From assembly GCA_021292105.1 (NCBI GenBank), contig CM037868.1:683549-747548 (forward strand): a stretch of DNA of 64,000 nucleotides. Reading direction: 5' to 3'. The position numbers were made by a program, and so were the translations under genes. The notes under the pieces were generated by a model. It saw only the letters and a list, made by a program, of their open reading frames with translations, ran no database searches and was not told the DNA's origin. This document shows positions 4,788 to 43,560 of the stretch, piece by piece (the first letter of the stretch is position 1; each line of letters starts with the position of its first letter). The DNA comes from Anadara kagoshimensis. Taxonomy: Eukaryota; Mollusca; Bivalvia; Arcoida; Arcidae.

Positions 4788-5809
4788 TTTAGTAGGTTCA
4801 ATCTAGTGTTAATAGCATTATTACCCGAATACCTGGTATACGAAAGTCAAGAACGAAGCTACTGGCCTCTAAATTAAAGCCAGTAGGTTCAATCTAGCGT
4901 TTTACAACGTAGGTAATAATATTATTATCCGAAAACTAAGTAAATGAAAGGCAGGAACGAAACCACTGGCCTCTAAATCAAAGCCAGTAGGTTCAATCTA
5001 GCGTTTTACAACGTGGGTTATACTATTATTACAAGAATACCAAGTATATAACAGTCAGGAACGAAACCACTGGCCTCTAAATCAAAGCCAGTAGGTTCAA
5101 TCTAGCGTTTTACTACGTGGGTTTTACTATTATTACAAGAATACCAAGTATATAACAGTCAGGAACGAAAACACTGGCCTCTAAATCAAAGCCAGTAGGT
5201 TCAATCTAGCGTTTTACTACGTGGGTTTTACTATTATTACAAGAATACCAAGTATATAACAGTCAGGAACGAAACCACTGGCCTCTAAACAAAGCCAGTA
5301 GGTTCAATCTAGCGTTTTACAACGTGGGTTATACTATTATTACAAGAATACCAAGTATATAACAGTCAGGAACGAAACCACTGGCCTCTAAATCAAAGCC
5401 AGTAGGTTCAATCTAGCGTTTTACTACGTGGGTTTTACTATTATTACAAGAATACCAAGTATATAACAGTCAGGAACGAAAACACTGGCCTCTAAATCAA
5501 AGCCAGTAGGTTCAATCTAGCGTTTTACTACGTGGGTTTTACTATTATTACAAGAATACCAAGTATATAACAGTCAGGAACGAAAACACTGGCCTCTAAA
5601 TCAAAGCCAGTAGGTTCAATCTAGCGTTTTACTACGTGGGTTTTACTATTATTACAAGAATACCAAGTATATAACAGTCAGGAACGAAACCACTGGCCTC
5701 TAAACAAAGCCAGTAGGTTCAATCTAGCGTTTTACAACGTGGGTTATACTATTATTACAAGAATACCAAGTATATAACAGTCAGGAACGAAACCACTGGC
5801 CTCTAAACA
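4788..5809 (+). repeat. 104-bp tandem array, left subterminal
   Basis: About ten units of roughly 104 bp, each running ccagtaggttcaatctagcg ... gaacgaaaccactggcctct. The first units are more diverged and continuous with the terminal repeat, while later units are nearly identical, pointing to amplification outward from the terminus. The array is broken at 5809 by the inner element, which inserted into a unit of the aaacaaagcc variant. Confidence 0.92.
5805..5809. repeat. Left target-site duplication of inner element
   Basis: AAACA here is repeated at 27827-27831. Uninterrupted array units (for example near 5287 and 5703) read ctctaaacaaagcc, exactly what results from removing the insert and one AAACA. 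A 4-bp AAAC reading is also possible because of the flanking A. Confidence 0.85.
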
Positions 5810-6010
5810 CAGTCCAGGGACTTACTAAAAACTGTAATATTACTTGAATCTGTAAGATTACAGGAAAGTGTAATCTTACAGAATACTGTAATCTAACCAC
5901 TATATTACACAAATCAGTAATATAGTATATTATTGATTTATGTAATTTAAGATTCTGTATTACAGAAAACTGTAATATAAGTGTTTATTTACACTAAAAT
6001 ACTATATAAC
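5810..6010 (+). repeat. Inner element left end with TGTAATAT motif cluster
   Basis: After the 20-bp terminus the next ~170 bp are packed with TGTAATAT/ATATTACA-type motifs in both orientations, including the palindrome tgtaatatta and gtaatcttacag. The right end (about 27640-27806) has similar motifs. Such clusters are commonly transposase binding sites. Here that is inference. Confidence 0.7.
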
Positions 6011-7272
6011 TTAAGTTTATGATATCAAGTTGCAATGGATATAAATACTGGTGTGTCACTAAAATCATCACTTGCATCAGTGAACATGAATGGACATGGA
6101 AACACCTACAGGAATGGTAAAAATCAATTAAATCTGACCTCATGAAAAGGCTAGTCCATCTATTTTCTTAAAATTAACAGGTAAAGAAAATTTTTGGTCT
6201 TTATACATAATTTTCTGTTGAAATTCAAAGTTTGCAATACATGGTCCCATATCCCTGTTATTGGTGAAATGTCTAGTTTTTGAGTGAAATGTGCTCTGAA
6301 AAAATGACCCCCTGATTTCAAAAACATTTTGTCAAGGGAAACAACTCATGTGTGCCTCATGGTATCTTCTGAAATCAAAGTAAATCAGTGGTTTGTACTT
6401 TATATGGGTGTGTGTTTATTTTTTGTGATATCAGGGTTTATAAGTTTTTATCTATATTAGAGTATGGAATTCAACATTAAGGTTTATAACAAAATTGAGT
6501 GGGTGATTTCTAATTTTGCAATAAATCAAGCTACCAATAGTCATGATGAATTGTGAAATTAATAAGAAATAAATTATTCCAATCTTAAGACCACACTTCA
6601 TCATTTATCTGAAATACATGAAAGGATGAAGTTGATTAATTCTGAAAATCATGGTTTGACCATTGCATCTTTTTTCTTGTCTACATGCAAATTGATGTAA
6701 CTCTTGAATATTTGTTTTCATTTTGATTTTTAATTTTTTTTTATTTAAAAAATAAATAATTCACATTTTCACTCATAAGGGAAAAATTGTCACCCTTCTG
6801 GCATTCTTTTAATTACTTTACAATTTCATAACAAAGAATACTATGTTATGAGAGGTAAAAGACAGAGACATTGGATTGAATTTGAATTTATTGGGATGTG
6901 TAAGTGGTGACAGCTAAGGAATATTGATGTATCCTCATTTTAAAGTCAGTAGGACCAAACTAAGTAATCACTGATGCCTGAAAAAAGTCTTTTTGTTAAT
7001 ACAAAGTTAAATTAACAATACAGTGATTCAATTTAGAGGTCTGATGTTCTACAGATTCTATACTCTCTATGTACAAGCTCCAAAGGATGGGAAATGACAT
7101 TTCATGCTACATTAAATTAATAGCTTTCACCAACCATCAAGGCAATTTAAAAAAGGTCACCCCCTGTAGTGTAGGTAAACATTAAAACTGACCAGTTTAA
7201 TATCAATGACAATTTCTACAAACTTGGACAAGTTTTGTCTTAAATAACTTTACACATGTATAGTCAACAATA
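6011..7272. other. AT-rich non-coding interior of inner element
   Basis: No exon, RNA gene or repeat recognised on either strand. Only very short open frames occur. Confidence 0.4.
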
Positions 7273-7848
7273 TAAAAACTGATCCCCACAGAAGAGACTT
7301 TAAAAACTGATGCCCACAGAAGAGACCTTAAAAACTGATGCCCACAGAAGAGACCTTAAAAACTGATGCCCACAGAAGAGACCTTAAAAACTGATCCCCA
7401 CAGAAGAGACCTTAAAAACTGATGCCCACAGAAGAGACCTTAAAAACTGATGCCCACAGAAGAGACCTTAAAAACTGATGCCCACAGAAGAGACTTTAAA
7501 AACTGATGCCCAAAGAAGAGACCTTAAAAACTGATGCCCAAAGAAGAGACCTTAAAAACTGATGCCCACAGAAGAGACCTTAAAAACTGATCCCCACAGA
7601 AGAGACCTTAAAAACTGATGCCCACAGAAGAGACCTTAAAAACTGATGCCCACAGAAGAGACCTTAAAAACTGATGCCCACAGAAGAGACCTTAAAAACT
7701 GATCCCCACAGAAGAGACCTTAAAAACTGATGCCCACAGAAGAGACCTTAAAAACTGATCCCCACAGAAGAGACCTTAAAAACTGATGCCCACAGAAGAG
7801 ACCTTAAAAACTGATCCCCACAGAAGAGACCTTAAAAACTGATGCCCA
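7273..7848 (+). repeat. 28-bp minisatellite, ~20 copies
   Basis: Unit aaaaactgatgcccacagaa + gagacctt, about 20.5 copies. Variants include gatcccc/gatgccc, cccaaag/cccacag and gacttt/gacctt. The gatcccc and gatgccc variants alternate irregularly, suggesting unequal exchange. Confidence 0.95.
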
Positions 7849-7879
7849 TTCAGGACAAGCATGGCACATTACAATATCC

Positions 7880-8100
7880 TCCCTGCACATTGATCTTATT
7901 GCACTGCAAAGGTAAAACTTTCAGCCACTTGTCCTATACCTGGTGATGTCTTGATATAAGTGAAATGTTCTTGACTAGGACATAAAACCCCACTCAATCG
8001 GTCAACCTGTAATATGCACATCACACAGCTTGTATGTGACATATGTAGTTCTCTCAGCAGTTGCCGTTTCCACTTGTATCCTGGCACGGATAAATTTATC
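7880..8100 (+). repeat. SINE 3' fragment (tgatgtcttgatataag family)
   Basis: Contains gcactgcaaaggtaaaac, then ctggtgatgtcttgatataa and cttgactaggacataaa, the shared tail of the tRNA-derived SINE family seen throughout the window. The tRNA-like head is missing. Confidence 0.7.
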
Positions 8101-8317
8101 AACAGAATGTTTGAATGGAGCGACTACCTAAGGTTACATCTTATGTACTTAACAAATATCAAACCCCTCACTTTGTATTGCTGATTGGTTCTTAACTTGA
8201 TCACCTATCTTAAGCATATTCTGATACATTCCTCCCTATTTTTAGTTGAGTTGAACAAAGTTAAACTTGACCATTAATTTGGTGATGTGGTTGGGCATGT
8301 GTGTTAGCAGGCTGGCA

Positions 8318-8670
8318 GGATACCACTGCGGTAGCTCATTGAGAGGTTGTGGGATCAAAGTCCAACAGGGTCTGATTAAAGACTTTAAAGTGGGTAGTGA
8401 ATGTTCTTTTGCATGGCACTGGGCACAAGGCACTGGGCATTACAAAACGAAAGTCACAGTTCTTTCGGATAGGAACTTAAAGTAAACAGGGCCCGTGTCA
8501 CGGAAGGTGTGGCACAATAAAGAATCCTACTGTATATATTATGTCATCAGCCTAATGCAAAGGCAGAATTTCTGCACCATCACTTATAGATGGTGATGTC
8601 TCGATATAATTGAAATATTTTTGACTAGGACATTTAACAACATTACTCAACTCAACTCTAAACACCTGCA
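8318..8670 (+). repeat. tRNA-derived SINE, nearly full length
   Basis: The head resembles a tRNA (actgcggtagctcattgag as A box, tgtgggatcaaagtccaa as a decayed B box). The body has taggaacttaaagtaaacag and cccgtgtcacgg. The tail has ggtgatgtctcgatataatt and ends near acattactcaactcaactc. The open frames in this stretch are incidental. Confidence 0.8.
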
Positions 8671-8724
8671 GATATTAAACTAATATTTGGTATGTGAGTC
8701 TACCATAATGAATCACCATCAAAT

Positions 8725-8900
8725 CATGATGCATGGTCCTCGGCATTACAAAATGAAAGTCAGTTTTTTCGGATAGGAACTTAAAGTAAACAGGGCCCGT
8801 GTCATGGAAGGTGTGGCAAGATAAAGAATCCTAAAGTACAATGTATATATAATGTCATCAGCCTAATGCATAGGAAAAATTTCTGCACCATCACTGCAAC
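8725..8900 (+). repeat. SINE fragment, same family as 8318-8670
   Basis: Repeats ggcattacaaaatgaaagtc, taggaacttaaagtaaacag and the catcagcctaatgca segment in the same order. It is truncated at both ends and followed by a C-run. Probably a partial duplicate of the adjacent copy or an independent insertion. Confidence 0.7.
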
Positions 8901-10500
8901 CCCCCCCCCCTTCTGGGGCCTTCTAGTATAAGATGGTCCCACATTGGGGTCCTAGTTTGGCTTCTGCATTCTAATGCATATTCAACAAAAAGTGGGTTTG
9001 GGGGTAAATGTATTGATTTGGATGTGTCTGTCCATTCATCTGTCTGGGTTGGATTTCATGGCTTGCAAGGCTCTCTTCTACTTCAGTTTGAAAGCTACAG
9101 CATTTATATTTGATAGGATGTTTGAATACATGATAGGCTAGATACAATCAAACTTCAATATCTTGATTACCACAGATATCTTCAAGTCAATATTGTATCT
9201 GTTTTCTGTATAAACTAAAAAGAGAGTTGTACCTGTGGTCAATGTTATTATTTACAGTCAAAAGACTGTTTTCATTACCATTATGTGCAATACATTGTAA
9301 CTACTCACAATGTTAATGTAAACAATTGTGTCAATTGCATTAGTGCACAGAGTACTGGTTTATCATGCAAGATTAACTGTTAAGAATATAAAAGTCATTT
9401 CTTTCTGGCAAGGTGACTTTTCAACTACAAAACCTCAAACACCCGAATAATTCAAAAGTACCAACAAATCCCTATGCACTCCGAGTTATCAAAGTTCTAC
9501 TTTATCCTAAAAATGTATATAAGAGCAGTGTTAGCTCTGATCATTTGTGAATTTAGCTAATTGCTTGTTTTTATAATTTCTGGCTCCAAAAATAGCCTTT
9601 GACATATTTTTGTTCCAAATTTTTATCAATTTCATAATGAGGCAGACAGAAATCACTGATTTTTTCTATTCTTTTATACAAAAGTATGAAAACCTAAAAC
9701 ATAAGTTACAAACTATCAACTGAAAACAATCTATACTGCAGAATAGAACTATATTTGATACATTTTTTGTTGCTCTTAGTTCCTCAGTATTTCTAACTCT
9801 TTAATGTATAAATTGGCTCCTACATTTTAAAATTGGCTCCTAATTTCTAAGATTGACTTATGTTTTGGCTCAAACGAGCTAACCCTGTTAGAGGCAGTTA
9901 GACATAGTCAGTGCATAAGCCAGATAGGGGTATATGGCTTCTATGACAAAAATATTTTTTCAAAATTTCTAGCATTAAAATTGAAAATTTGATTCATAAG
10001 AACATGTAAAAGGTTGAGACTAAACAAACAATTGTGCATTTTAACTGTATGAACATTATTGGACTGACTCGATTTTTAAATGTTAATTTTTACATTGTTT
10101 TTAACTTTTATTCATAGCAGAGGATAACATACACATATTTTAAATGGGTAATTTACGTGTTTTTATGGTTTTTCTCTAAAATATATATTAAGATTCAAAT
10201 GGACCATCAACATAGTCCCCATACATCTGGGAAGTATCAGGAATTTTTCTAAGGTCAGAGAATTGGCAGGGAATTTTAAATAAAGTCAAGTGTGGGAACC
10301 ATGACCAGCTCTCCATGAAGCAGCATCATATGTTTTTACTACAATGCATGATGTATGTTTCAATCAGCAATTCCGTAGAATAATAAAATGGCAAATGCAA
10401 AATATACTTTTTGAATATGAATGTTGATAAAAAGTTGCATATATGAGGGATGCCAAGCCAGTCTATGACATAAATATGAGGAAAATGATCTTGAAAGATC
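8901..10500. other. AT-rich non-coding interior of inner element
   Basis: No gene supported. Around 9530-9900 there are repeated ggctcc phrases resembling other mollusc dispersed repeats. Nothing else is recognised. Confidence 0.4.
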
Positions 10501-11260
10501 CTGTATTTTCCCTGCTGTAATGTTGATGCGTCGTTAACCTCTATTTTCATTTTCTCCTCTAAAACTACCAGAAAAATTTCAATGGATCTTGGTCAGAAAT
10601 TCATATGATTTATTGGGATATTGCCATGGCTACAAAGATTAGGTCAAGGTGAACTTGGCTGCAAAACTCTGGAAAAAAACTTCTCCGAAACTGATATCTG
10701 AAGAAAAAATCTGATGTGAATTGGCTTCTCTAGAATCTAATGCCTGTAGTTTATTCATTTTGTGAAATTGAGAAAAAAAAGGGTTAAGTTGTTTTTTTTT
10801 AATTTAATGTTGAAAAAACTGTAAAATAGCTTCAAATTGTAGTAACTTGACTATTTGAACAGATAAGGTCATGGAGTACCGTATTCAGTTTTTACATATT
10901 CTTGTAATATTCTTGTAATAATCTTGAAAATGGTGCAAGGTCAAAGGTCAGGCTTATGCTTTTATTAATTATCTTGAAAACTATTAACTTTTTATAAAGG
11001 TACATACATGTATTAGAATATTGTTGCTGTTGATGTAATGATCATTTCGAAATATAAGTACAGGTCATGGATTCAAAGGTGAAGGTAACAGATGCGAAAA
11101 AATACTGAAATAATTATAATTATCTGGAAAAGCTTTAAAATTTCACTATAGGTGAAGATTTTGACATTGGAGTTTCAGATTTTATTTTTTTTTAAAACGT
11201 TTTAGCTAGTCATTTATCAGGTGAGTGTATCGGGCCCAATTGAGCTTCTTAATAAAATGT
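10500..11260 (+). repeat. Diverged copy of the 1112-1860 dispersed repeat
   Basis: Shares, in order, cctctattttcattttctcc, ttggtcagaaa, gccatggctac, ctgaagaaaaaatctgatgt and gaaactataaacttttt-like phrases with 1190-1800, and ends with atcaggtgagtgtatcgggc. No intact coding frame. Confidence 0.65.
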
Positions 11261-11374
11261 GAAGCTATAGAAAATAAAAGTACAGCAAAAACCACAATAC
11301 CGGTATTTGGGATTTTCAAAAGTCATTACCCACTAGAACAGTTAGAAAAATATATTCAACCTGCCTAGTCTATA

Positions 11375-11710
11375 TGTCAAGAGAGAGAGAGAGAGAGATA
11401 TCAAGAGAAATGAAACTTCTTTGAGAGAGAGGGAGGGAGAGAGAGAGAAGAATATTACGACTGGTAACTTCAGCACACTGTCATGTGCTACTTTTGAATT
11501 TTTATAAAATAATATATGTAATTCAAAAGTAGCACATTGCAATTTGTGCTACTTTTGAATTATATTATTTTATAAAAATTCAAAAGTAGCACATGACACA
11601 TTTATATTTTAAATAGAGAGAGAGAGAGAGAGAGAGAGGATATCAAGAAAAATGAAACTTCAACACACTTATATTTTAGTAAATTTAGAGACAAAGAGAG
11701 AGAGAGCTAA
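11375..11710. repeat. (GA)n microsatellites flanking a palindrome
   Basis: GA-rich runs at about 11380-11460, 11612-11640 and 11692-11707, with the phrase gaaacttc followed by caacacac repeated beside them. The open frames across it are simple-repeat artefacts. Confidence 0.85.
11479..11598. mobile_element. 120-bp nested palindrome (foldback MITE)
   Basis: The outer arms starting tgtcatgtgctacttttgaa (11479) have their reverse complement ending at 11598, with about 37 bp of near-perfect pairing. Inside, ttcaaaagtagcacattgca and its complement form a second hairpin. A similar sequence without the insert (cttcaacacacttatatttt) lies about 60 bp downstream, so this looks like a small insertion. 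No protein. Confidence 0.8.
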
Positions 11711-12019
11711 GACTAAACCTTGTTATATTTGATCACGTGCCTACGTTCAAACCCTACTTGGAACACATCCTAATGTGAGAATGTTTGTCATGTCCCTTGC
11801 CGAAGTTTTTTTTTTTTCAAAACAATCCGGTGGCCTCCACCATCCTTATCTGACGGCCTCGTTATAATAAATGACAGAATTTTGACCGGGTAGTAAAACA
11901 TGCTTGACAACATACAATGTAACCAAAAACAGGACACAACTGACAACACAACAAAAGGTGATTGAATCAATATAGGAAAAGACATAAATATATTAAGACC
12001 ACTGATTATAAAACTCTTA

Positions 12020-12350
12020 ACTGTACAACCACTGCGGTAGCACAGTTGATAGAGTGCTCGCTCTGTAAATGGGAGGTCGTGGGTTTGAATCACGACTGGG
12101 TCCGACCGAAGACTAAAAAGTGGATATTGACTTTTTTTTCACCAAACACTCGGCATTAGGAAATTAAAGTAACGGTTCTTTTGGATAGGAACTTAAAATA
12201 GACAAGGTCCCGTGTCACGACAGGCTCGCTACGATAAAGAACCCTGCTGTATAATGCCATCAGCACCTTCGCTTATATAGCTGGTGACGTCTCAATATAA
12301 GTGAAATATTCTTGACTGGGACGTAAACATCATTACTCTGTGTTGAGTTG
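12020..12350 (+). repeat. tRNA-derived SINE, full length
   Basis: Head accactgcggtagcacagtt and ggtcgtgggtttgaatcacg carry good A and B boxes. The body has taggaacttaaaatagacaa and cccgtgtcacgac. The tail has gctggtgacgtctcaatata and ttgactgggacgtaaac. This is one of the better preserved copies. Confidence 0.85.
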
Positions 12351-13480
12351 GTCATACTATATATGATGTAAGTGATGGTTTTCTCTACCCCGACATTGAG
12401 AATATGTAGTGACCGTTTGAACTACACTAGTTGTGATCAGTTTTCTGTTTTGGTTGCTAATTTTTTAAAAAATGTTTAACAACTGATCAGTCCATTTGTA
12501 TGGTTAAAGTTTCGGAATCAAAGTTACGGTTTCAGCTTTTAAAACTTAAGATATATCAAAATAAAAGCATTTTCGTGGGCTTTATTTTGTATAATTGATC
12601 GAAAATCTATTATTTTCAGAGTTCCTATTTTGGGTGAAACATGCAAATTTGGATTTTTTCCGCCCATCTATTTATCTTCTTCTAATATTCAAGTCAACAC
12701 AAATAACATATTTGAGTTTTATATCAACCCAAGCTCAAGGAATTATGAGAAAAAAGTCAAATTACACAATTAATTCATCACTTGTGTAACGCAGTTATCG
12801 CACTTTTGGTTACCATGGTAACGGATTTCTTTGTTTCAAAGTACCATTTTAGTGAAAGCAGACTATGAGATTCCTATTATACACAATTTAGTATTTATCC
12901 AACCATTGATATCATTGGAGTTTGGACTCAAATTTATCGACCAAACTTTTCAAAAATGGCTTTTGCAATGTTGTTATTAAATGATTGGCCGAAAATACTA
13001 CAAAATTCAGAATTCATAGTTTTTGGTGAAAACAGAAATTGTAAAAGCATCAAAAGTCATATATTTTACACTTGCCAACATGTAAAAATATCAAAATATA
13101 TTGAAATTAAAAAGCAATTTACTCTTAATCTTCGTTTTTGCATGGTTTTTATTGCCATGGCAACCATAATTTTATTGAAAATATTTTTAAATAAAATTTT
13201 GGAAAACAGTTTATTTATGTGTGGTTTAGTAATGGTAAAATTTCAGCGAAAACTTAAATATTTATGTCAAAATAATGATCAGCTTTAACAAAATAAAACA
13301 CATTTTTCTCATCAATGGTATGCCAATTTTTATATTTTAGACCTAATAACTACTAAATTTGTTCTTTTTATCTTTTGTAAAAACATGCAAAATTTTTTAA
13401 TTATCTTTTTGCGGCATCTTTCATTGATACTTAACTTTGATTTCCTGCAAAACCATATTTTTCTAGGGTACAAGTCTCCA
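12351..13480. other. AT-rich sequence with ccatgg motifs
   Basis: No supported gene. Two spots carry ggttaccatggtaacgg and tgccatggcaac, small palindromes. A 110-codon open frame at 12956-13288 has the skewed, lysine/isoleucine/phenylalanine-rich composition of translated AT-rich DNA and no recognised domain, so I do not call it. Confidence 0.35.
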
Positions 13481-14759
13481 GATACACCCTGTACTGCTTC
13501 GCATTAGGGGACATGATTATGTCATATCGGGGGACATGATTTGAAGCGGGGAATTCAGACAGGTGGGTTCAAAATGCTTTCGTTTTGTACCAAAATAACA
13601 TATTTCGGTCATAATTATTGCCTCACGGAACATTACGATATGTCTGTGAGGCAATGCATCTACGATTTGGTATAAGATAAGGCCATAAATACTACTTTAC
13701 CCCTGCAATGTTTTGCTGGTGCGGACTACGAAGCATTTTTCAATGCAAAACGTGGTAATGTGTACACTTGAAGATCTACACAATGCAGATTTTGCATTCG
13801 GTATGTAAAATATCATCTATACTTTCATCTGTACCAAACTTATACCACAAAACCCCCTATTTCTTTCACAATTAGTGTTTTAAATATGTATCAACCGGGG
13901 GGGATGACTTTGGAATCGCCCGGGGGACATGATCAGAGTTAAATTACAGACAGTGCTGTTGATTTTTACAAATAATTTAAGAAAACACACTGCCAAATGC
14001 CATGAATGCTTGATCACATCATAAGTTAACTGTTTGGGCAATGTGCACCTATGTCTGCATAGATACGCATTCATATTGCTTTGGGAAAGGTTAGTCAAAA
14101 CTTTTATATGCGTTTGAGGATACCAATAAAGTACACTACATAATAATTGATGTTTTTGAATAAATATATTTATATTTTACAAAATTGTGACTGAAATAGA
14201 TTGGTTTATTTTTCAATAAAGATAACATCACAATCAAGAATATCCACCTGTGTATTGGCATACATATGCTCTCTGCATGGTGCTGTTTTACTGACAGCTT
14301 CCAGATTAGGAATCTATGGAGTTAAACTAAATAATGATGATTAGTATTGCATGTATTATCATTATTATCATTTCAGTTCGGGTGCGAATGCAGTGCCTTT
14401 TTATCAATCCCATGCAAAGCATTTTCTAGTGAATAAAAATGACATTTCGAGTGCCGAGGATATGTTATTTTTTCTTAGAATACTGAGGTTTCTCTATTAT
14501 TTCTAAGCTAATCGCCTCAACATAAGCGAAATAATGTTTAACAGCAGTCAACGTGAATAACATGTTTGCAATTCAGCTCTTTGTATATGCCTTGTTAGAA
14601 GTATTTCGCGGTCATATTTGAAAATAAGTTAATTTTATTATTGATTTTTCTAATATCAGGTATATCACTGTATATGGTTCAAAAGAAAACTTTTGTTTCA
14701 GACAATATGCCAAACAAAAAAAGACTAGTCTCTTGCTTCACCCCATAAACGCAAGCCAA

Positions 14760-15065
14760 AATATGTCAACCTTCTTCAAAGAGACGTCGATTTACAGTTT
14801 CTCCATTCTTCTCAGAAACTGCCACGAACTTGTGATAATGCTAAACATTTGCTTTTGGATGAAGCATCTTTGTGGCAAGCATGTGTGTAGACTCACATGA
14901 CTTGAGTACGAAAGGTTTTGTTGCAAATCTTGCATCGCCATGTATGTGTATCTTCGGGTTCGAATTATTTGATAACATGACGAACATTTCTGTCTTCCAA
15001 AGCAATTCTTCAGCTACGGTTAAAAAGATGCAAATACTTGATATTCTTATTGACCACAGGAATGT
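14760..15065 (-). pseudogene. Possible decayed zinc-finger gene fragment
   Basis: On the minus strand, near 14930, one frame reads WRCKICNKTF, the start of a Cys-x2-Cys zinc finger, followed after one stop by a Thr-His-x2-His-like stretch. Further on, frames give FVAVSEKNGETVN. Base usage is less AT-skewed than the surroundings. Stops and frame changes rule out a working gene. Identification is weak: one finger-like motif only. Confidence 0.22.
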
Positions 15066-15239
15066 CGAGGTAATGAATACTTTTGATGGGGGGGGGGGTG
15101 GGTGGGGGGGGCTCATTTTTCAACGTTGAAAATTGAGACCAGTTGTGTTTGAATTAAGACCCTATCCAGTTGAAAATTGAACCGTATCGTGGAATTTTGA
15201 TCAGAAGACCGAGTCAAATTTCAACTGGTTAAAACAGAT

Positions 15240-15262
15240 AACAATAATAATAATAATAATAA
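15240..15262 (+). repeat. (AAT)n microsatellite
   Basis: A run of aataataat units at about 15243-15262. Confidence 0.8.
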
Positions 15263-15552
15263 ATTGATGCTTGTTTTTTCTAGTTGTTTGGGTTTTTTGT
15301 GGTTTGTATAAATAATTTTGTAGGGATGTTAATGATATAAGTTTCAGTCAATCTGTCTATCTGTCATTATGTCTGTCTACCTGTACTTTCTTGTCAGGTA
15401 CTTTTTTGTTGCATGCTGTATTACACCGTGTTCCTGATTGTGTTGGCTATTGCCAAGTTCATGTTTTCATCTGCAAATCTCTTTTTTATATGTATGACTA
15501 CCAAAACTTACAAAGTGAATCTTAAACGACAACGCATACAGTGTGATATATA

Positions 15553-15770
15553 TGGGTAACTTGGTAGCCAAGTGGTTAGAGACGGATTGCCTCACAGCCA
15601 AGGTTCGAATCCCAATTGGGACAGATTCTAGTGTGAGAAGTTTGTAGCTTGCAGAAGGTCAGTGGTTTTCTTTTTGCACTCTGGTCTTTCTCTACCATTT
15701 CTTGACTGACCGCCTCGATATAAATTAAAGAATCTTGACTGGGGTGTTAAACTCCAATATATAGTGTTCC
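15553..15770 (+). repeat. SINE, tRNA-derived, short variant
   Basis: Head ggtaacttggtagccaagtg and gccaaggttcgaatcccaat resemble a tRNA with clear A and B boxes. The tail tgaccgcctcgatataaatt and gaatcttgactggggtgtta matches the family tail. The middle body of longer copies is absent, so this is a separate subfamily or an internal deletion. Confidence 0.75.
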
Positions 15771-16880: not shown

Positions 16881-16892
16881 ATTGGATCAATA

Positions 16893-16966
16893 TACTGGTT
16901 AATAGTGTCATATACCACTTTTTAAATTTGAGCATAAAATACATTCAAAAAGTGGTATATGGCAAT
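16893..16966. repeat. Short hairpin, catataccacttttt arms
   Basis: catataccactttttaaat at the left pairs with attcaaaaagtggtatatg at the right around a ~30-bp loop. A small palindromic MITE-like relic. Confidence 0.65.
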
Positions 16967-17608
16967 AGTAAGCAACATAGTTAACAATTTTTAAATAACA
17001 TGGCACGTGCATTGCATTTTTTAACAATTTTCGCTACGTAACCTTGGCGAAAAGTACACGTTTTTATGAGAAAGAAATGTGTTATTTCGCAAAAATTAAG
17101 CGTTATTACGCGAATGCTTTTTGTTCTACCAAATTGAACCCAATAGACTTTCGTAAAGTTGAATTTTGTCATTGTTGTAAATTTTACTGTCCTATTATGT
17201 ATTACGTATAGCTGCAAAATCGATGGCGTGTCATATCGTTAATGGCTACAGTGTACATTCGAGTCCGGAAGACAGACCAAAACTCTGTGTTTGTGGGAAG
17301 GGGCAATATTAAACAGGGTAAATTTTCAACAAATTGAGATAATATTTATAGAAAAAAATAATTATCAACCTGTTGAAAAATGACCCCGGGTATAAATTTT
17401 ACGAATTTTTGTCAAAAAAGCACCCCTGGCTAAATATTCAACGTTGAAAAATGAACCCCGGATCAAAATTCTTCATTACACCGGTTACTACCTCCTAATG
17501 CCAAGTACCAACTAGAACTGTCAGTGAAGCTGACTTGTAATCCCCCCTTGCATACAAGTAAGGTTTTTTCATTTTATTTGGTCACGACTCTTGACCTACA
17601 TCCGTACA

Positions 17609-17785
17609 TACCTGTCGAAAGTTTAACACAAAGCTAATGAATGGGTGAAATATCTCATCGAATGATATCAATATCTCGCTTGCTTTTCGACCAAGGGCTA
17701 TGAATTTCTCAGCCAGACGGCAGGCCAATTTCTGTTTCTTTTCGTTACTCATTGGTAAACTTTCAAAAGGTCCAACTATATGCAT
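17609..17785 (-). CDS. Possible captured exon, unknown protein
   Basis: The minus strand from an ATG at 17785 encodes a non-AT-skewed stretch (MSNEKKQKLACRLAEKF, then EILISFDEIFHPF) that ends exactly at a strong donor, CAG|GTATGT, near 17608. An in-frame stop lies just before the ATG, so either this is a first coding exon or an exon whose acceptor is the CAG about 40 bp upstream, in another frame. No family recognised. It lies in the loop of an inverted-repeat structure, a location expected for a gene fragment picked up by a transposon. No partner exon was found nearby. Confidence 0.35.
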
Positions 17786-17839
17786 CTACCATTGGTATAT
17801 GAACCATATACGACCATATACCTGATATTAGAAAATCAT

Positions 17840-17960
17840 TAGGATTGCAATACAGGTGTTTGGTTGGTTGAATGCTGTTAAACATTATTTCACTTCTATT
17901 GGGGCGATCAGCTAGGAATGATGGGGAAAACCGTAGTACTCTCAGACAAAACCACATATC
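17840..17960. repeat. ggttgaatgctgtt-type repeat fragment
   Basis: ttggttggttgaatgctgtt and ggggcgatcagcta match a phrase also at 33500-33550 (ggttggttgaatgttgctta). A widespread short mollusc repeat, judged from its recurrence here. Confidence 0.5.
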
Positions 17961-18565
17961 CTCGGCAAGCGAATGTCATTAAAGCTTTGAGTGGGACTGC
18001 ATTCGCACCCAAACTGAAGGCAAATACATGTATAATGATAATAATCACCAACATCATCATCATCTAGTTAATTTTAAGTAAAATATTCTTGATTGTTATG
18101 TTAATCATCTTTATTTCAGTCACAATTTTTTAATGTGTACAAAGCAATATGAATGTGTATCTGTGTAAAAATTGGTGCACATTGCCCAAACAGTTAACTT
18201 ATGATGTGATCAAGCGTTCGTGGCATTTGGTGTGTGTTTTCTAAATTATTTGTGAAATCAACAGCATTGTCTGTAATTTACCTCTGATCATGTCCCCCGG
18301 GCGATTCAAAGTCACCCCCCCGGTTGATACATATTTAAAACACTAATTGTGAAAGAAATAGTGGGTTTTGTGGTATAAGTTTGGTACAGATGAAAGTATA
18401 GATGATATTTTACATACCGAATGCAAAATCTGCATTGTGTAGACCTTCAAGTGTACACATTACCACGTTTTGCATTGAAAAATGCTTCGTAGTCCGCACC
18501 AGCAAAACATTGCAGGGGTAAAGTAGTATTTATGGCCTTATCTTATACCAAATCGTGGATGCATT

Positions 18566-18712
18566 AAAGGATTAAAATGCAAACATAAAGTGATGTTTCA
18601 ACATTTCAATAAACACATTTTTATAATACATGTAAGTGTATTTATCTCAGAATAGATCATGTTTACCATGATCCTGGTTTTTCCTTGATGCACTTTATGT
18701 ATTAATATTATT
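18566..18712. other. AT-rich spacer
   Basis: Nothing recognised between the inverted-repeat structure and the C-rich repeat that follows. Confidence 0.4.
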
Positions 18713-19388
18713 ATCCCCCCCCCCCACCCCCGCCATCAGTGGTGAGGGGGGATATAGTAATACTGCTTTGTGTGTGTGTGTGTGTCGGGGGTCCGTCCTA
18801 GTTGGTTTCTGTGCATTTAAAAGAAAACCCTACATCAGATTGAGCTGAAACTTGGTCAGTTGATTCGTTATGATAGTGATTGGTGTGGGATTGCTCGACA
18901 GCCTTATAGCATATCCAAGATGGCCACCATTATTATAAATAACAAAAACATATAAATGGCTGTTGCAGCCTTATTTATGTACCGATTTCATCGATATTTT
19001 CAATATATATAGAAAATAGAACTCGGGTATTAAACATATTTAACTGGATTTTCTGAAAAAATTTTAGTTTGCAAAATATATATGACCATTACAGCCATAT
19101 TTATGAACCAATTTCATCAGAATTTTAAACATAGGAAATAAAACTGTGGGAATTAATCATATGTAATAGGATTTTCCATTAAATTTTAGTTTGCGTAATA
19201 TTTATAAAATATGCAAATAAGGTGTACTTTAATTTGTTGTGGTTTTCAATCTAATAAATGGGCAAACTAGCCCACTTATTTAACAACCAGTGTTCCATAA
19301 AACATATTTCACCTTGTATGGAATTCACTGATGTTCGCCTTTGCAGAGGTGGGGTGGGGGTAGTGTTCTCTGAACACCTTGTTTAATA
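18713..19388. repeat. C-run / ggggatatagtaat dispersed repeat
   Basis: Starts at a long C-run, then gtgaggggggatatagtaat, a (GT)n tract and cgggggtccgtcctagttgg. Its far end is gttcgcctttgcagaggtgg ... ctctgaacaccttgttt. The end structure resembles the repeat at 32190-32528 (cccccccccactttctaagc ... ggacggacggac) in reverse orientation. No coding frame. Confidence 0.6.
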
Positions 19389-21299
19389 TAAAATTATCAT
19401 GTCTCCAACCTAGCTATAGTACTAGAAAGGATGATGTCTGAATCAAGATAAAATTTCATCAACACTGTAATGTCACAATATAGCTTCTCTAAACAGGTAT
19501 TTTAAAATTTAAAAGATAAGGAAAGTAGCAGATGTTGTTTTGTTCTTTGTTAAGATAAATGCCTTTCCTCTGGTTTAAATGGGAATCCCTGTTCCAAAGT
19601 CATTTGTATTTAGAATCATTGGGGCGGAGAGCTCAATTCTGTGTTGGACATTATTGACCACCTCCTGTAGTTTTATTCTAGTGTCACCAGTTTTAACAAG
19701 AGTATAACAATAACCAAACTTTTTATATTATTCTAAATGTTGAGAAGGGAGATTGAACTTATTTTGATATCAAGCAAACAATAAACAAGAAATTTCACAA
19801 AAAATCATGTGCTAAAAAGTAGAAAGTCTTTATAAGTTAGTAGTAATCAGATGGGGCATACAGAGTCAAAATTAAAATGGATTTTTTTATAAATGCTTGT
19901 TTAGCATGCAAGAAAAATAAAAATAGTCTTTTTATAATATCAAAAATATGTACAAATGCAAATATATATAATAAATTTTCCGAGAGAATCTTGCCATCAT
20001 GGTTCACTGCATTGGTGTGACTTTATGGTTAGAGAATATGATGTCATGGATATTATCTTTAAACAGATCATGCATAAGACTTTAAAGTTTGAGATGCTGC
20101 TTCCTCCTCTTGCACTTGGTATAGAGAGGACAGAGTTTCTGGTTCACAAAGTAACCAGAAAAAAATTAAAAAGTGAAAATTTGAAAAGGTCCACATGGCT
20201 GTCAAATTTAATCAAAATTGAGTCAGTATGACATAGTAGATCACCTATATAAAAGTTCATACCAAATATGAATCCAACATCTCAACAATAAAGAATAAAC
20301 TGTTTAGGGACAGACAAGTGGACAACCAGAGAAAACCTATAGTCCCTTTCCAGTTTCAATGGACTAATTAATATCTGATAAAAGTTTGACACTACGTATC
20401 TTTAAAACTGTTTTTTTTTAAATTGTCCAACTTTTGAAAGACATTCAAGTATATCTGGGACTAAATGTGCCTCCTATGATAATACAATATGTTATACCTT
20501 TTAGATCACCCCCTTCCAATCATTTCTATTGTATTGGAGAAAGCTTAATAGCCATTTAGGTATTTTAAAACCCATGCATCATTGACACCCAGAATAAATC
20601 TTTAAATAGGTGGGAAGAATAACCAAATGATTATGAGTTTAGAATAAACCAACTTTCATTTGGTGGGTTGAATATCAATTTAAGTAACACAAATGGCACA
20701 ATAGCAAACCTATAAAACCAAAAAATAATGGCCACACAATAAAGGTTTAACCCTCATGTCAGTACAATGAATGTACACTTTCAAGTGTCCATCAATTTAA
20801 AACTCATTACTTCTACTGATCAGATCAAAAGGTTAATTTTTCCATATACAGTATTGTGATAGTGCTCCTGAATCTGTGATAATTTCTATTATGGAAATGT
20901 GTCTCTAATAATCCTTACAATTTAAATTTCTAATGTAATGTAATGAATTTTAACTTTATAAAGTTGCTTTAATTATATTACTAAGAAAAATAAATTTATT
21001 TTGATTTTACACATGTGTGTATTTATTATGAGTGTAGAGATTAATCATCACAAATTAAAATTTTGGAGCACATAAGGATTCCTTATCATGAATACCCCTT
21101 TGACAAATTGAATCTTCCCAGCAAATTAATCCTAGACAAACTAAAAACAATATCTTGAACAAAATAGTTTTCTGCTATAAACATAATTTCTTTGTTAATT
21201 ATAATACATGTCGATTTTCAACTACAAATAAAACATTTTTCTTTTTCATTCGCCAATATTGAAAAATCATTGTCCGTTGATTCAACAATTTTACATAAT
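19389..21299. other. AT-rich non-coding interior of inner element
   Basis: No exon, RNA gene or tandem array recognised. The 91-codon frame at 19956-20231 has no recognised motif and ordinary AT-rich composition. Confidence 0.35.
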
Positions 21300-24200
21300 G
21301 TAATATAAGGCTCAATCAGAAATGACCATTTCAATATGTAGCATTGTGTGATCAGAATTGGTTGATTCATCAATATTACATATTTCTGTAATATAAGATT
21401 GAATCAAACATGACCAGTTCAATGTGTGGCATTGTATCATCAGAATTAGCAAATTCATCAATATTACATATTCCTGTAATATAAGATTCAATCGAACAAG
21501 GCCATTTCAATATGTAGCATTGTATGATCAGAATTGGTTGATTCATCAATATTACATATTCCTGTAATATAAGATTGAATCAAACATGACCATTTCAATA
21601 TGTAGCATTGTATGATCAGAATTAGCAAATTCATCATATTACATATTTCTGTAATATAAGATTAATCAAACATGGCCATTTCAATATGTAGCATTGTATG
21701 ATCAGAATTGGCTAATTCATCAATATTACATATTCCTGTAATATAAGATTCAATCGAAAAGGCCATTTCAATATGTAGCATTGTGTGATCAGAATTGGTT
21801 GATTCATCAATATTACATATTCTGTAATATAAGATTAATCAAACATGCCATTTCAATATGTAGCATTGTATGATCAGAATTGTTGATTCATCAATATTAC
21901 ATATTTCTGTAATATAAGATTCAATAAACATGGCCATTTCAATATGTAGCATTGTATGATCAGAATTAGATTCATCAATATTACATATTCTGTAATATAA
22001 GATTAATAAACATGGCCATTTCAATATGTAGCATTGTATGATCAGAATTAGCTAATTCATCAATATTACATATTCCTGTAATATAAGATTCAATCAACAT
22101 GGCCATTTCAATATGTAGCATTGTATGATCAGAATTGGTTGATTCATCAATATTACATATTCCTGTAATATAAGATTGAATCAAACATGGCCATTTATAT
22201 GTAGCATTGTATGATCAGAATTGGTTGATTCATCAATATTACATATTCCTGTAATATAAGATTCAATCAAACATGGCCATTTCAATATGTAGCATTGTAT
22301 GATCAGAATTGGTTGATTCATCAATATTACATATTCCTGTAATATAAGATTCAATCAAACATGGCCATTTCAATATGTAGCATTGTATGATCAGAATTAG
22401 TTGATTCATCAATATTACATATTCTGTAATATAAGATTAATCAAACATGGCCATTTCAATATGTAGCATTGTATGATCAGAATTGGTTGATTCATCAATA
22501 TTACATATTCCTGTAATATAAGATTCAATCAAACATGACCATTTCAATATGTAGCATTGTATGATCAGAATTGGTTGATTCATCAATATTACATATTCCT
22601 GTAATATAAGATTGAATCAAACATGACCATTTCAATATGTAGCATTGTATGATCAGAATTAGTTGATTCATCAATATTACATATTCCTGTAATATAAGAT
22701 TCAATCAAACATGACCATTTCAATATGTAGCATTGTATGATCAGAATTGGTTGATTCATCAATATTACATATTCCTGTAATATAAGATTAATCAAACATG
22801 CCATTTCAATATGTAGCATTGTATGATCAGAATTGGTTGATTCATCAATATTACATATTCCTGTATATAAGATTGAATCAAACATGACCATTTCAATATG
22901 TAGCATTGTATGATCAGAATTGATTCATCAATATTACATATTCTGTAATATAAGATTAATCAAACATGCATTCAATATGAGCATTGTATGATCAGAATTG
23001 GCTGATTCATCAATATTACATATTCCTGTAATATAAGATTCAATCGAACAAGGCCATTTCAATATGTAGCATTGTGTGATCAGAATTGGTTGATTCATCA
23101 ATATTACATATTCTGTAATATAAGATTGAATCAAACATGACCATTTCAATATGTAGCATTGTATGATCAGAATTGTTGATTCATCAATATTACATATTTC
23201 TGTAATATAAGATTCAATCAAACATGGCCATTTCAATATGTAGCATTGTATGATCAGAATTGATTCATCAATATTACATATTCTGTAATATAAGATTAAT
23301 AAACATGGCCATTTCAATATGTAGCATTGTATGATCAGAATTGGCTAATTCATCAATATTACATATTCCTGTAATATAAGATTCAATCAAACATGGCCAT
23401 TTCAATATGTAGCATTGTATGATCAGAATTGGTTGATTCATCAATATTACATATTCCTGTAATATAAGATTCAATCAACTATGGCCATTTCAATATGTAG
23501 CATTGTATGATCAGAATTGGTTGATTCATCAATATTACATATTCTGTAATATAAGATTCAATCAAACATGGCCATTTAATATGTAGCATTGTATGATCAG
23601 AATTGGTTGATTCATCAATATTACATATTCCTGTAATATAAGATTCAATCAAACATGACCATTTCAATATGTAGCATTGTATGATCAGAATTGGTTGATT
23701 CATCAATATTACATATTCCTGTAATATAAGATTGAATCAAACATGACCATTTCAATATGTAGCATTGTGTGATCAGAATTGGTTCATTCATCAATATTAC
23801 ATATTCCTGTAATATAAGATTAATCAAACATGACCATTTCAATATGTAGCATTGTATGATCAGAATTGGTTGATTCATCAATATTACATATTCCTGTAAT
23901 ATAAGATTAATCAAACATGCCATTTAATATGTAGCATTGTATGATCAGAATTGGTTGATTCATCAATATTACATATTTCTGTAATATAAGATTGAATCAA
24001 ACATGACCATTTCAATATGTAGCATTGTATGATCAGAATTGCAAATTCATCAATATTACATTTTCTGTAATATAAGATTAATCAAACATGGCATTTCAAT
24101 ATGTAGCATTGTATGATCAGAATTGGCTAATTCATCAATATTACATATTCCTGTAATATAAGATTCAATGAAAAGGCCATTTCAATATGTAGCATTGTGT

Positions 24201-25975
24201 GATCAGAATTAGTTCATTCATCAATATTACATATTCCTGTAATATAAGATTGAATCAAACATGACCATTTCAATATGTAGCATTGTATGATCAGAATTGT
24301 TGATTCATCAATATTACATATTTCTGTAATATAAGATTCAATAAACATGGCCATTTCAATATGTAGCATTGTATGATCAGAATTAGATTCATCAATATTA
24401 CATTTCTGTAATATAAGATTTAATAAACATGGCCAATTTAATATGTAGCATTGTATGATCAGAATTAGCTAATTTATCAATATTACATATTCCTGTAATA
24501 TAAGATTCAATCAACTATGGCCATTCCAATATGTAGCATTGTATGATCAGAATTGGTTGATTAATCAATATTACATATTCCTGTAATATAAGATTGAATC
24601 AAACATGGCCAATTTAATATGTAGCATTGTATGATCAGAATTGGCTAATTCATCAATATTACATATTCCTGTAATATAAGATTCAATCAACTATGGCCAT
24701 TTCAATATGTAGCATTGTATGATCAGAATTAGTTGATTCATCAATATTACATATTCCTGTAATATAAGATTCAATCAACTATGGCCATTTCAATATGTAG
24801 CATTGTATGATCAGAATTAGTTGATTCATCAATATTACATATTTCTGTAATATAAGATTTAATCAAACATGGCCAATTTAATATGTAGCATTGTATGATC
24901 AGAATTGGTTGATTCATCAATATTACATATTCCTGTAATATAATAAGATTCAAGCAAACATGACCATTTCAATATGTAGCATTGTATGATCAGAATTGGT
25001 TGATTCATCAATATTACATATTCCTGTAATATAAGATTGAATCAAACATGACCATTTCAATATGTAGCATTGTATGATCAGAATTAGTTCATTCATCAAT
25101 ATTACATATTCCTGTAATATAAGATTGAATCAAACATGACCATTTCAATATGTAGCATTGTATGATCAGAATTGGTTGATTCATCAATATTACATATTCC
25201 TGTAATATAAGATTCAATCAAACATGGCCAGTTTAATATGTAATATTGTATGATCAGAATTGGTTGATTCATCAATATTACATATTCCTGTAATATAATA
25301 AGATTCAAGCAAACATGACCATTTCAATATGTAGCATTGTATGATCAGAATTGGTTGATTCATCAATATTACATATTTCTGTAATATAAGATTCAATCAA
25401 CTATGGCCATTTCAATATGTAGCATTGTGTGATCAGAATTGGTTGATTCATCAGTATTACATATTTCTGTAATATAAGATTCAATTAAACTTGGCCATTT
25501 CAATATGTAGCATTGTGTGATCAGAATTGGTTGATTCATCAATATTACATATTTCTGTAATATAAGATTCAATCAAACATGGCCAGTTTAATATGTAGTA
25601 TTGTATGATCAGAATTGGTTGATTCATCAATATTACATATTCCTGTAATATAAGATTTAATCAAACATGGCCAGTTTAATATGTAGTATTGTATGATCAG
25701 AATTGGTTGATTCATCAATATTACATATTTCTGTAATATAAGATTCAATCAACTATGGCCATTTCAATATGTAGCATTGTATGATCAGAATTGGTTGATT
25801 AATCAATATTACATATTTTTGTAATATAAGATTCAATTAAACTTGGCCATTTTAATATGTAGCATTGTGTGATCAGAATTGGTTGATTCATCAATATTAC
25901 ATATTTCTGTAATATAAGATTCAATCAACTATGGCCATTTCAATATGTAGCATTGTATCATCAGAATTAGCGGAT
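21300..25975. repeat. 88-bp satellite, ~53 copies
   Basis: Unit of about 88 bp: gcattgtatgatcagaattg, gttgattcatcaatattaca, tattcctgtaatataagatt, caatcaaacatggccatttc, aatatgta. Each unit holds a hairpin TATTACA-tattcc-TGTAATA. Units differ by small deletions and a few alternative bases (ggttgatt/agctaatt, catgacc/catggcc/ctatggcc). Edge units are most diverged. The many minus-strand open frames (repeating CNIDES, SYIT and DHTMLHIEM) exist because 88-bp units with indels happen to lack stops, so they are not genes. Confidence 0.97.
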
Positions 25976-27640
25976 GTATTAATATTACATATTTCTATTA
26001 TATTTCTGTAATGCAAGATTCAAATTTGTCTAGTCACATGTGAATGTAAATAAAATCTATACTGTGTTTTATTACATGGTAATGAATGTTTTTTCTATTG
26101 TGTCATTTTGCAACAAATGACGCCATTGTATATCTTAAAACCATTTTCCACTTCTTTGTCAGTCAACATGTGACTGTATTCTGACTTTGTTTCCATGTAT
26201 TAATTAAAACATAACATTTTTTTCATGGGTATTAAAGTCAGTTGAAAGATTTGTTACTCTGAAAAAAAAATTATAATTGAAATGACCAAGACCAGCCTAT
26301 ATTTCATTTTCATGTATCAAGTAATATATTAATTTGCCCTCATGCCCACATGACAGATTGGCTTACTCCAACCTCATGCAGTCATTCCAGAAATAATCGT
26401 ATTGCTTATATTCCTTTAAACGGTCAAAAATGAAATTTTAAAATCAGACTCTTTTATGTCTCTTAAAAACAAAGATGTATATGTACAGAATTAAAAAATG
26501 AATTATTACACACACCAAATTCGAAATAAAAAAATTATGATAACAGCTGGATAATTTCATACTTTCAACAATAAAGTCATATAAAACTGTTCTAAGTGAC
26601 TATTATTTTGCTGGTTTTAGCATTAATTACAGAAAAGGCAAATGTTGTTTGTAAGAACTTGTCCGGTCGAGTGATAATATATCCTGGATAAATGCTTATA
26701 TGCAATCTGAAATCGTGGAACTTTATCCATGTTAGGAGGTTAGGCATTATGGAGGTTAGAAATTAACAACTGTGCGCTATTAACACTGAATAAATCCGAA
26801 CAGAATTTTACATCATTTTAATACTAAGAAGACATATGCCACTGTTTTTCAACGTAGTTTTTCAGAAAATGGTATAACAGAGGTTAGTTCCTTATATGAG
26901 ACTTTGAAAAATTCTATCTCAATATTGGATTTAAAGACATGATTTAAAAATTCCTATCTAATATAAAGTTTCCCCCTGTACTCTTAGGCCATCATTGTAA
27001 TCTGAAATAAGTTTCATATCTTTATTGCTTTTAGTTATGAATTCCGCACGTAATGAAATATCTGTTACAGGTTAGGATTTTTTCCGACACATGTAAAATA
27101 AACGGTTCAAAATTTTGAATAATCACTTTTAGAAAATCTACTTGGTTCAAGACCCTATCTGATGTTAAGAAATAAATCTGATAGAATTTGTAAAATGGTT
27201 CCATTTAAAAACTATAATATCAGCTCTGAAAGTTTACATATTGCTATTGCAACATGCTCAAACGTCACATTTTCCTTCCAGAATCTGTCTCCACGGACAA
27301 GAAAAACCATTGTCAACGTTAAACATTATGGTATTATTTTGGAATGACTGCATGGTATATTCTGCTGCATAGACTTTTAAAATTAAAATGTAGATTTCGT
27401 TTTATATACATGTACTGTATGACCCATATTTGTCAATTAAACAATAAAAAAAATTTCTGTAACATAAATGGCATTATTCATATGATACTGTGTTATATTT
27501 GATGTTTTATTGCTGAATATACTAATATTCTACTGTAGAAATTTTAGAAATCTTTTTTTTTTTTAAAATAACCTTTTTCAACTTATAATTGATTTATTCA
27601 TGTTAATTTAAAAAAAATTAAAGGGAAATAACCACTACAG
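25976..27640. other. AT-rich non-coding interior of inner element
   Basis: No gene recognised. The 61-codon frame at 27162-27347 has no motif or splice context that persuades me. Confidence 0.4.
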
Positions 27641-27826
27641 AGAATTGTTACAAATGTATTAAATTATAGGTTTTTTGTATTTGAAAGGGAGATAACCATT
27701 ATAGAAAATTGTTAAATTACAGTTTTTTGTAATACAAACATTACAAAGTAAAGAGAGATAACTCTAATTACTTTGTTATATTACAGATAATTGTAATATT
27801 ACAATATTTAGTAAGTCCCTGGACTG
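27641..27826 (-). repeat. Inner element right end with ATATTACA motifs
   Basis: Contains aaattacagttttttgtaat, tatattacagataattgtaa and tattacaatatttagtaagt, ending in GTAAGTCCCTGGACTG, the inverted copy of the left terminus. Repeated gagataac(t/c) phrases occur at 27625, 27688 and 27765. Confidence 0.75.
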
Positions 27827-27831
27827 AAACA
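27827..27831. repeat. Right target-site duplication of inner element
   Basis: AAACA, the copy of 5805-5809. The 104-bp array unit resumes directly after it (aagccagtaggttcaatcta). Confidence 0.85.
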
Positions 27832-29672: not shown

Positions 29673-29686
29673 ACTATAAGTCATGT

Positions 29687-43553: not shown

Positions 43554-43560
43554 CTTCAAA

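What the first reader, a model, noticed from the sequence alone, without database searches (positions are those of the whole stretch)
5805..27831. 22-kb element without recognisable transposase, nested in the array of another element
Perfect 20-bp ends, an AAACA duplication, and a pre-insertion site recoverable from sister array units in the same window (ctctaaacaaagcc) make the insertion very well supported. Its size, with no recognised coding sequence, is surprising: most large DNA transposons carry genes. It may be an undescribed giant non-autonomous family or a decayed autonomous one with introns.
Basis: partly seen in the sequence, partly recalled or inferred. Interest (0 to 1): 0.85.

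Follow-up and report, generated by a model that had tools for sequence, protein, structure and literature searches.

The report
Giant gene-free jumping DNA family
A 22,000-letter piece of DNA in which no gene could be recognised has been inserted dozens of times around this genome as a nearly unchanged unit, probably moved by an enzyme made elsewhere.

Summary
The window element (5810-27826) has perfect 20-bp inverted ends and an AAACA duplication. The 20-mer occurs 110 times in the window's own 1.1-Gb genome (control 0). In the 100 listed hits, 32 facing pairs lie 18.4-26.1 kb apart, median 22.0 kb. The 8 further copies fetched in full are collinear with it at 97.1-99.0% identity. Perfect 5-bp duplications flank 14 of 15 pairs tested, window included.

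No transposase was recognised in the 9 copies read. The longest window ORF (139 aa) is near chance, Pfam gives nothing for the window's ORFs, and no codon periodicity is seen. One pair of copies differs by only 0.17% and is equally gene-free, so decay is a poor explanation.

The ends carry palindromic sites phased at 18 bp; the same site fills an internal 88-bp array of 17-54 units. No other family with this TIR was found.

Best reading: a giant non-autonomous TIR transposon moved in trans. A 5-bp-TSD hAT-type transposase is a plausible but unproven helper.

The parts
5805..5809 (.). left copy of 5-bp target-site duplication AAACA
   Evidence: 13 of 14 further pairs tested also have perfect 5-bp duplications
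5810..5829 (+). left 20-bp terminal inverted repeat; bases 2-13 form an interrupted palindrome AGTCC-AG-GGACT
5832..5899 (.). left subterminal palindromic sites (pattern CTGTAATATTACAG) at 5832, 5850, 5868, 5886: 18-bp phasing; a further site at 5970
   Evidence: up to 4 mismatches; 5886 needs 4
7273..7848 (.). 28-bp tandem array, about 20 units here, 0-9 units in the 8 other copies
7854..8888 (.). old dispersed (SINE-like) repeats at 7854-7998, 8340-8680, 8739-8888, 68-89% identical to places elsewhere in the window
   Evidence: the label SINE-like is by eye
10527..11152 (.). old dispersed repeat, about 71% identical to window 1189-1815
12023..12338 (.). old SINE-like dispersed repeat, 66-84% identical to five places in the window; aligned in 7 of the 8 other copies (C8 lacks it)
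13653..14083 (+). outer arm 1 of an internal imperfect inverted repeat (weaker similarity continues inwards)
   Evidence: 95% over 431 bp to 18565-18140
18140..18565 (-). outer arm 2 of the internal inverted repeat
21276..25993 (.). 88-bp tandem array, about 54 units, with 102 palindromic sites like those at the ends (51 at up to 3 mismatches); 17-54 units in the 9 copies
27709..27804 (.). right subterminal palindromic sites at 27709, 27773, 27791 (last two 18 bp apart)
27807..27826 (-). right 20-bp terminal inverted repeat
27827..27831 (.). right copy of target-site duplication AAACA

Best explanation
This is one copy of a recently mobile family of giant non-autonomous TIR DNA transposons. 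A cut-and-paste transposase made elsewhere recognises the CAGTCC... tips together with the subterminal palindromic sites, moves the whole 18-26 kb unit, and inserts it at AT-rich 5-bp targets that become duplicated. Shown: identical ends, 5-bp duplications, collinear interior, dozens of dispersed copies, recent spread, lack of recognisable genes in the copies read, and phased sites at both ends and in an internal array. [quoted passage not shown] The interior looks like ordinary host DNA with old dispersed repeats that was enclosed between the ends before the family spread. The 88-bp array is probably an internal amplification of the terminal site module.
For: Ends and TSD: (14 of 15 pairs, window included). 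Copy number and size. The 30 end loci fetched (of 110 exact ends) all match the left or right end of the window element (91.8-99.2%). Eight of 8 further copies are collinear: 14,819-16,502 of 16,723 unmasked bases aligned, 97.1-99.0% identity. Pairwise divergence among 9 copies is 0.17-3.1%, with 545 singleton and 172 shared variable columns, so several source copies moved over time. Gene-free: the longest ORF outside arrays is 139 aa in the window, against 112.7 on average in first-order Markov resamples (17 of 200 reach 139). In the 8 other copies the longest is 219 aa, in one copy, and the longest listed in more than one copy is 147 aa (array frames filtered out, fetched pieces end every 10 kb). 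Pfam gives 0 families at E<=1 for 85 of 90 window ORFs, Rfam 0 at gathering score, and codon-phase periodicity is at best p=0.039 among 95 windows. Two hAT proteins of this genome find nothing in the 9 copies by tblastn at E<=1, while each finds the other at 50%. C7, C10 and C16 lack the same ~400 bp and are the closest group, so that stretch is dispensable. Site density (up to 3 mismatches) is 22/kb and 16/kb at the ends and 10.8/kb in the array, against 0-0.07/kb in the rest of the interior and the flanks. A hAT with a 769-aa ORF (DUF4371 plus Dimer_Tnp_hAT), CAGTGGCGTAGC ends and an apparent 5-bp TSD (AAAAA) exists in this genome.
Against: No helper was identified: no other sequence shares the first 12 bp of the TIR beyond chance (18 against control 17, only places whose base 16 is not C). 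The hAT whose ends I found shares only 6 of the first 12 bases (counted by hand) and has no such sites at its ends; the ends of the other hAT fetched were not found. Non-autonomous families usually generate short deleted forms (recalled), and none was seen among the 32 pairs. Only 9 of 38 spans were read in full, so an autonomous sister copy may be unread. One copy (C16, a member of the closest pair) lacks a matching TSD. The 5-bp TSD of the candidate hAT rests on one insertion with a run of A. ORFs of 60 aa or more are slightly in excess (39 against 30.8; 13 of 200 resamples reach 39).
Confidence: 0.68

Rival explanations
1. The family is autonomous: the interior encodes a transposase in many short exons, or of an unrecognised kind, so copies must stay full length to move.
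For: No other family with this TIR was found, and 47 of the 50 listed site-module places (of 206) are assigned to ends of this family. No exact pair is under 18.4 kb. The stretch 18.8-19.8 kb has 4-11 variable sites per 500 bp against about 19 on average (C9 left out). ORFs of 60 aa or more are slightly in excess.
Against: No Pfam match at E<=1, no codon periodicity, longest ORF near chance, deletions in many ORFs among copies, a ~400-bp deletion tolerated in the closest group of copies.
Confidence: 0.2
2. One or a few unread copies are autonomous and carry the transposase; the sequenced copies are its internally replaced derivatives.
For: Only 9 of 38 spans were read in full; several spans are 2-4 kb longer. 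Two copies on C15 have similar excesses (2.3 and 2.1 kb) in the same interval, which I could not read.
Against: The three placed excesses over 4 kb lie in three different intervals (C17 left of probe A, C14 between A and B, C1 right of B); a fourth, C9:364959, could be placed only left of B. The one I read is a nested Gypsy-like LTR retroelement (label by eye). None of the 150 scored hAT-dimerisation places (of 724 candidates) lies in the 38 spans.
Confidence: 0.1
3. Assembly or segmental-duplication product, or an integrated virus.
For: Only size and repetition.
Against: Precise ends with 5-bp duplications at unrelated flanks, 13 different ones in 14 cases; hits on each of contigs C1-C19; no protein family of any kind in the window's ORFs; no exact hit of the tip in viral contigs.
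Confidence: 0.02

Closest known systems
hAT transposons with 5-bp TSD (hAT5)
   Same: 5-bp TSD, CAG...CTG tips; hAT5 is a named group (passages of PMC12730594). A 5-bp-TSD hAT appears to exist in this genome.
   Different: No hAT coding sequence found in the 9 copies read; about 20 kb against 3.2 kb for the hAT delimited here; TIR equal to that hAT only in CAGT and two further bases.
Giant transposase-less DNA transposon families of Ectocarpus (PMC12477816)
   Different: Those families carry other genes; here no gene is recognisable, and there is an internal array of terminal sites.
Large retrotransposon derivatives (LARDs)
   Same: Long interior, not necessarily coding, moved in trans (passage of PMC6431247).
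   Different: LARDs are LTR retroelements that rarely exceed 10 kb (same passage); here TIRs and 18-26 kb.
MITEs
   Same: Non-coding, TIR, TSD (recalled).
   Different: MITEs are short, hundreds of bp (recalled).

Membership tests
cut-and-paste TIR DNA transposon | identical terminal inverted repeats and fixed-length TSD at independent sites | tested here: met
   (14 of 15 pairs, window included)
hAT / hAT5 | 5-bp TSD (hAT5) | tested here: met
   definition from passages of PMC12730594
hAT / hAT5 | tips beginning CAG (recalled) | tested here: met
hAT / hAT5 | hAT transposase encoded within the family | tested here: not met
   9 copies; window; 38 spans against 150 hAT-domain places. Not filed as an autonomous hAT; 29 spans unread
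hAT / hAT5 | TIR shared with an autonomous hAT of the same genome | tested here: inconclusive
   no 12-bp sharing beyond chance; of two hAT copies fetched the ends of one were found: 6 of 12 tip bases equal
Polinton/Maverick | 6-bp TSD, long TIRs, polymerase B and integrase (recalled) | tested here: not met
   5-bp TSD; no Pfam hit in window ORFs
Transib | 5-bp TSD with CACWGTG tips (recalled) | tested here: not met
   TSD fits; tips CAGTCC do not
MITE | short length (recalled) | tested here: not met
   32 pairs, 18.4-26.1 kb

The most novel reading that the evidence does not exclude
A self-sufficient giant transposon family of an undescribed superfamily. No smaller relative and no helper with the same ends was found in the genome, and the internal array of terminal-type sites is a working part, for example an enhancer or docking array for the transpososome, so that the unit moves only as a whole.
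Probability: 0.14. Interest if true: 0.88.

Novelty: new variant of a known kind. Interest (0 to 1): 0.62.

Why it matters
It shows that a ~20-kb DNA segment without recognisable genes can be mobilised again and again without short forms becoming evident, which cuts against the usual expectation (recalled) that non-autonomous DNA transposons are small. It offers a natural test of cargo limits for eukaryotic transposases. The internal array built from terminal-type sites raises a testable question about transpososome assembly or titration.

Tried and rejected
Chance or assembly artefact: rejected. Decayed autonomous family: disfavoured, because copies 0.17% apart (C7, C16) are equally gene-free. 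Larger copies as the autonomous form: the three placed excesses over 4 kb lie in different intervals and one of them is a Gypsy-like retroelement; smaller excesses of about 0.6-2.3 kb between probes A and B (C15:41225089, C15:45713283, C10, C17:33748936, C18) were measured, not read, except C10, whose copy was fetched. A second family with the same TIR: none beyond chance; both hits look like variant tips of this family (one lies beside its site module; the other 14 kb from an interior match). A second family with the same site module: of 50 listed places (of 206), 39 lie beside exact tips, 2 beside a variant tip, 6 face an unpaired tip at 18.5-22.9 kb, and 3 (C7:5576076, C7:5723141, C14:29664694) were not assigned, though their sites resemble right ends by eye. 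RNA family: none at gathering score. Viral contigs: none for the exact 20-mer. Literature: the listings showed no gene-free ~20-kb DNA transposon; I saw passages of four papers and otherwise only listings; the library lacks most subscription journals, and no Repbase Report turned up. Donor locus for the interior: not testable, since the DNA search scores only 40 places. ORFs under 48 aa were not scanned.
Full report
OBSERVATION. The 20-mer CAGTCCAGGGACTTACTAAA lies at 5810-5829 (+) and, inverted, at 27807-27826, flanked by AAACA on both sides. The element interrupts a 104-bp array (4817-5807, its unit resuming at 27827). The uninterrupted sequence CTCTAAACAAAGCC occurs twice in the window. The similarity of the two ends extends to 53 bp at 85%.

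FAMILY. The window's own genome (1.115 Gb, 36 contigs, unnamed) holds 57+53 exact copies of the 20-mer, against 0+0 for the reversed control. With up to 3 mismatches it holds 93+107 against 16+19. In the 100 listed exact hits (of 110), 32 facing pairs lie 18,425-26,076 bp apart (median 22,018), and 36 ends have no exact partner. The paired-palindrome pattern of the subterminal sites has 206 places and control 0. Fifty of these are listed: 39 lie beside exact tips, 2 beside a variant tip, 6 face a so far unpaired tip at 18.5-22.9 kb, and 3 are not assigned. The part of the genome listed there holds 11 of the 36 unpaired ends. With those 6, 38 spans are known. If each left end gives two places and each right end one, 206 places mean roughly 69 copies (inference). 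The 30 end loci fetched all match the left or right end of the window element (91.8-99.2%). Thirteen of 14 further pairs have perfect 5-bp duplications; C16 does not. The 14 perfect cases, window included, comprise 13 different sequences and are AT-rich, 56 of 70 bases.

COLLINEARITY AND AGE. Eight further copies were fetched in full, picked by size, mostly from the shorter half of the 32 pairs. All are collinear with the window copy: 14,819-16,502 of 16,723 unmasked bases, 97.1-99.0% identity. Each of the 8 lacks some part of window 14556-15266, with differing borders. Of these places 15 (A) and 17 (B) lie outside the 38 spans and are presumably copies whose ends are damaged or not listed; 7 A-B pairs among them are linked. 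In 23 of 25 spans with a measured value, the distance from left end to A is 2.86-3.57 kb. Pairwise divergence among the 9 copies is 0.17-3.1%. C7, C10 and C16 are 0.17-0.50% apart, share a ~400-bp deletion, and have different flanks. The family has therefore moved recently and from several sources (172 shared variable columns).

NO GENES RECOGNISED. The longest stop-to-stop ORF outside arrays is 139 aa in the window. First-order Markov resamples average 112.7 aa, and 17 of 200 reach 139; ORFs of 60 aa or more number 39 against 30.8, which 13 of 200 resamples reach, a slight excess. In the 8 other copies the longest is 219 aa, in one copy; the longest listed in several is 147 aa. Array frames were filtered out there, and the fetched pieces end every 10 kb. 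A 135-aa ORF in C7, in a stretch not aligned to the window, looks like reverse transcriptase by eye. Pfam: 0 families at E<=1 for 85 of 90 window ORFs of 48 aa or more. Rfam: 0 at gathering score. Variable sites show no codon phase: best p=0.039 in 95 windows. Two hAT proteins of this genome find nothing in the 9 copies, while finding each other at 50% identity. The window's zinc-finger gene, by contrast, is a plain 572-aa ORF. The interior holds old dispersed repeats, 66-89% identical to others in the window. Those at 7.85-8.89 and 10.5-11.15 kb align in 8 of 8 copies, that at 12.02-12.34 kb in 7 of 8. The interior thus resembles ordinary host DNA.

CIS SITES. The 14-bp palindrome CTGTAATATTACAG (up to 4 mismatches) occurs at 5832, 5850, 5868 and 5886, 18 bp apart, and at 27773 and 27791, also 18 bp apart. 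It occurs 102 times in the internal 88-bp array; among the first 14 positions printed, five neighbouring pairs are 18 bp and one 17 bp apart. At up to 3 mismatches the density is 22, 16 and 10.8 per kb in left end, right end and array, against 0.07 per kb in 6011-21275 and the right flank and 0 in 25994-27619 and the left flank. At up to 4 mismatches 25994-27619 rises to 3.1 per kb against 0.5-0.8 in other background. The array has 17-54 units in the 9 copies, counted with a 21-bp probe, and explains part of the length variation. Single-strand folding of both ends and of an array unit is stronger than shuffles (z -4.1, -3.7, -3.4). I infer these are binding sites of the transposase or a partner protein. 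This is not shown.

MECHANISM AND FAMILY. A fixed 5-bp TSD and CAG...CTG tips fit hAT elements of the hAT5 group (5-bp TSD stated in passages of PMC12730594; the CAG rule is recalled). The genome has at least 150 matches to the hAT dimerisation domain (150 of 724 candidates scored), several with open frames of 576-769 aa; none of the 150 lies in the 38 spans. One that I read (769 aa; DUF4371 and Dimer_Tnp_hAT) has CAGTGGCGTAGC ends and an apparent 5-bp AAAAA duplication. It shares only 6 of 12 tip bases with the giant element and lacks the sites at its ends, so it shows the class, not the helper. The ends of the other hAT fetched were not found. No other sequence shares 12 bp of the giant's tip beyond chance (18 against 17).

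WHAT REMAINS OPEN. Why no short forms are seen; whether an unread copy is autonomous; whether the low-variation stretch at 18.8-19.8 kb (4-11 variable sites per 500 bp, C9 left out, against about 19) is constrained or a recombination effect. One excess of about 4.4 kb (C17) proved to be a nested Gypsy-like retroelement. Excesses of over 4 kb in C14 and C1, another in C9:364959 that lies somewhere left of B, and of about 2 kb in two C15 copies were not read.

NOVELTY. Passages of PMC12477816 describe giant DNA transposon families without transposase homologues, but with other genes. Passages of a review of giant transposons (PMC6431247) treat coding giants and LARDs. Passages of a bivalve transposon survey (PMC10294476) name no such element. 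The listings of my searches showed no gene-free DNA transposon of this size in the held library. I call it a new variant of a known kind.

Noticed in passing
4600-30230: The outer repeat that the giant element interrupts looks like a foldback element: 104-bp array (+) at 4817-5807 and from 27827, two 63-bp arrays 27871-29657, inverted 104-bp array 29685-30078, and inverted flanks continuing outwards (reading by eye).
   Followed up: partly
18810-19810: Stretch of the giant element with 4-11 variable sites per 500 bp among copies, against about 19 on average; the right end 26-27.6 kb is the most variable (29-39).
   Followed up: partly
13653-18565: Internal 4.9-kb imperfect inverted repeat; the outermost 251 bp of the arms are 99% complementary, inner parts 78-91%. 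Cross-matches between the arms are visible in at least 6 of the 8 other copies (output cut for two).
   Followed up: partly
5810-5822: The tip itself contains an interrupted palindrome AGTCC-AG-GGACT.
   Followed up: no
14556-15266: Hypervariable part of the giant element: each of the 8 other copies lacks some of it, with differing borders.
   Followed up: no
56925-64000: 40-bp satellite array of about 177 units running off the window end, strongly G-skewed.
   Followed up: no
43543-45258: Open frame of 572 aa with C2H2 zinc fingers.
   Followed up: partly
34057-34416: C-type lectin domain fragment on the minus strand.
   Followed up: partly
L053 (own genome C16:10672900-10677600): hAT element with a 769-aa open frame, CAGTGGCGTAGC ends and apparent 5-bp duplication.
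   Followed up: partly
L051 (own genome C17:25897000-25904862): Gypsy-like LTR retroelement nested in another copy of the giant element (label by eye).
   Followed up: partly
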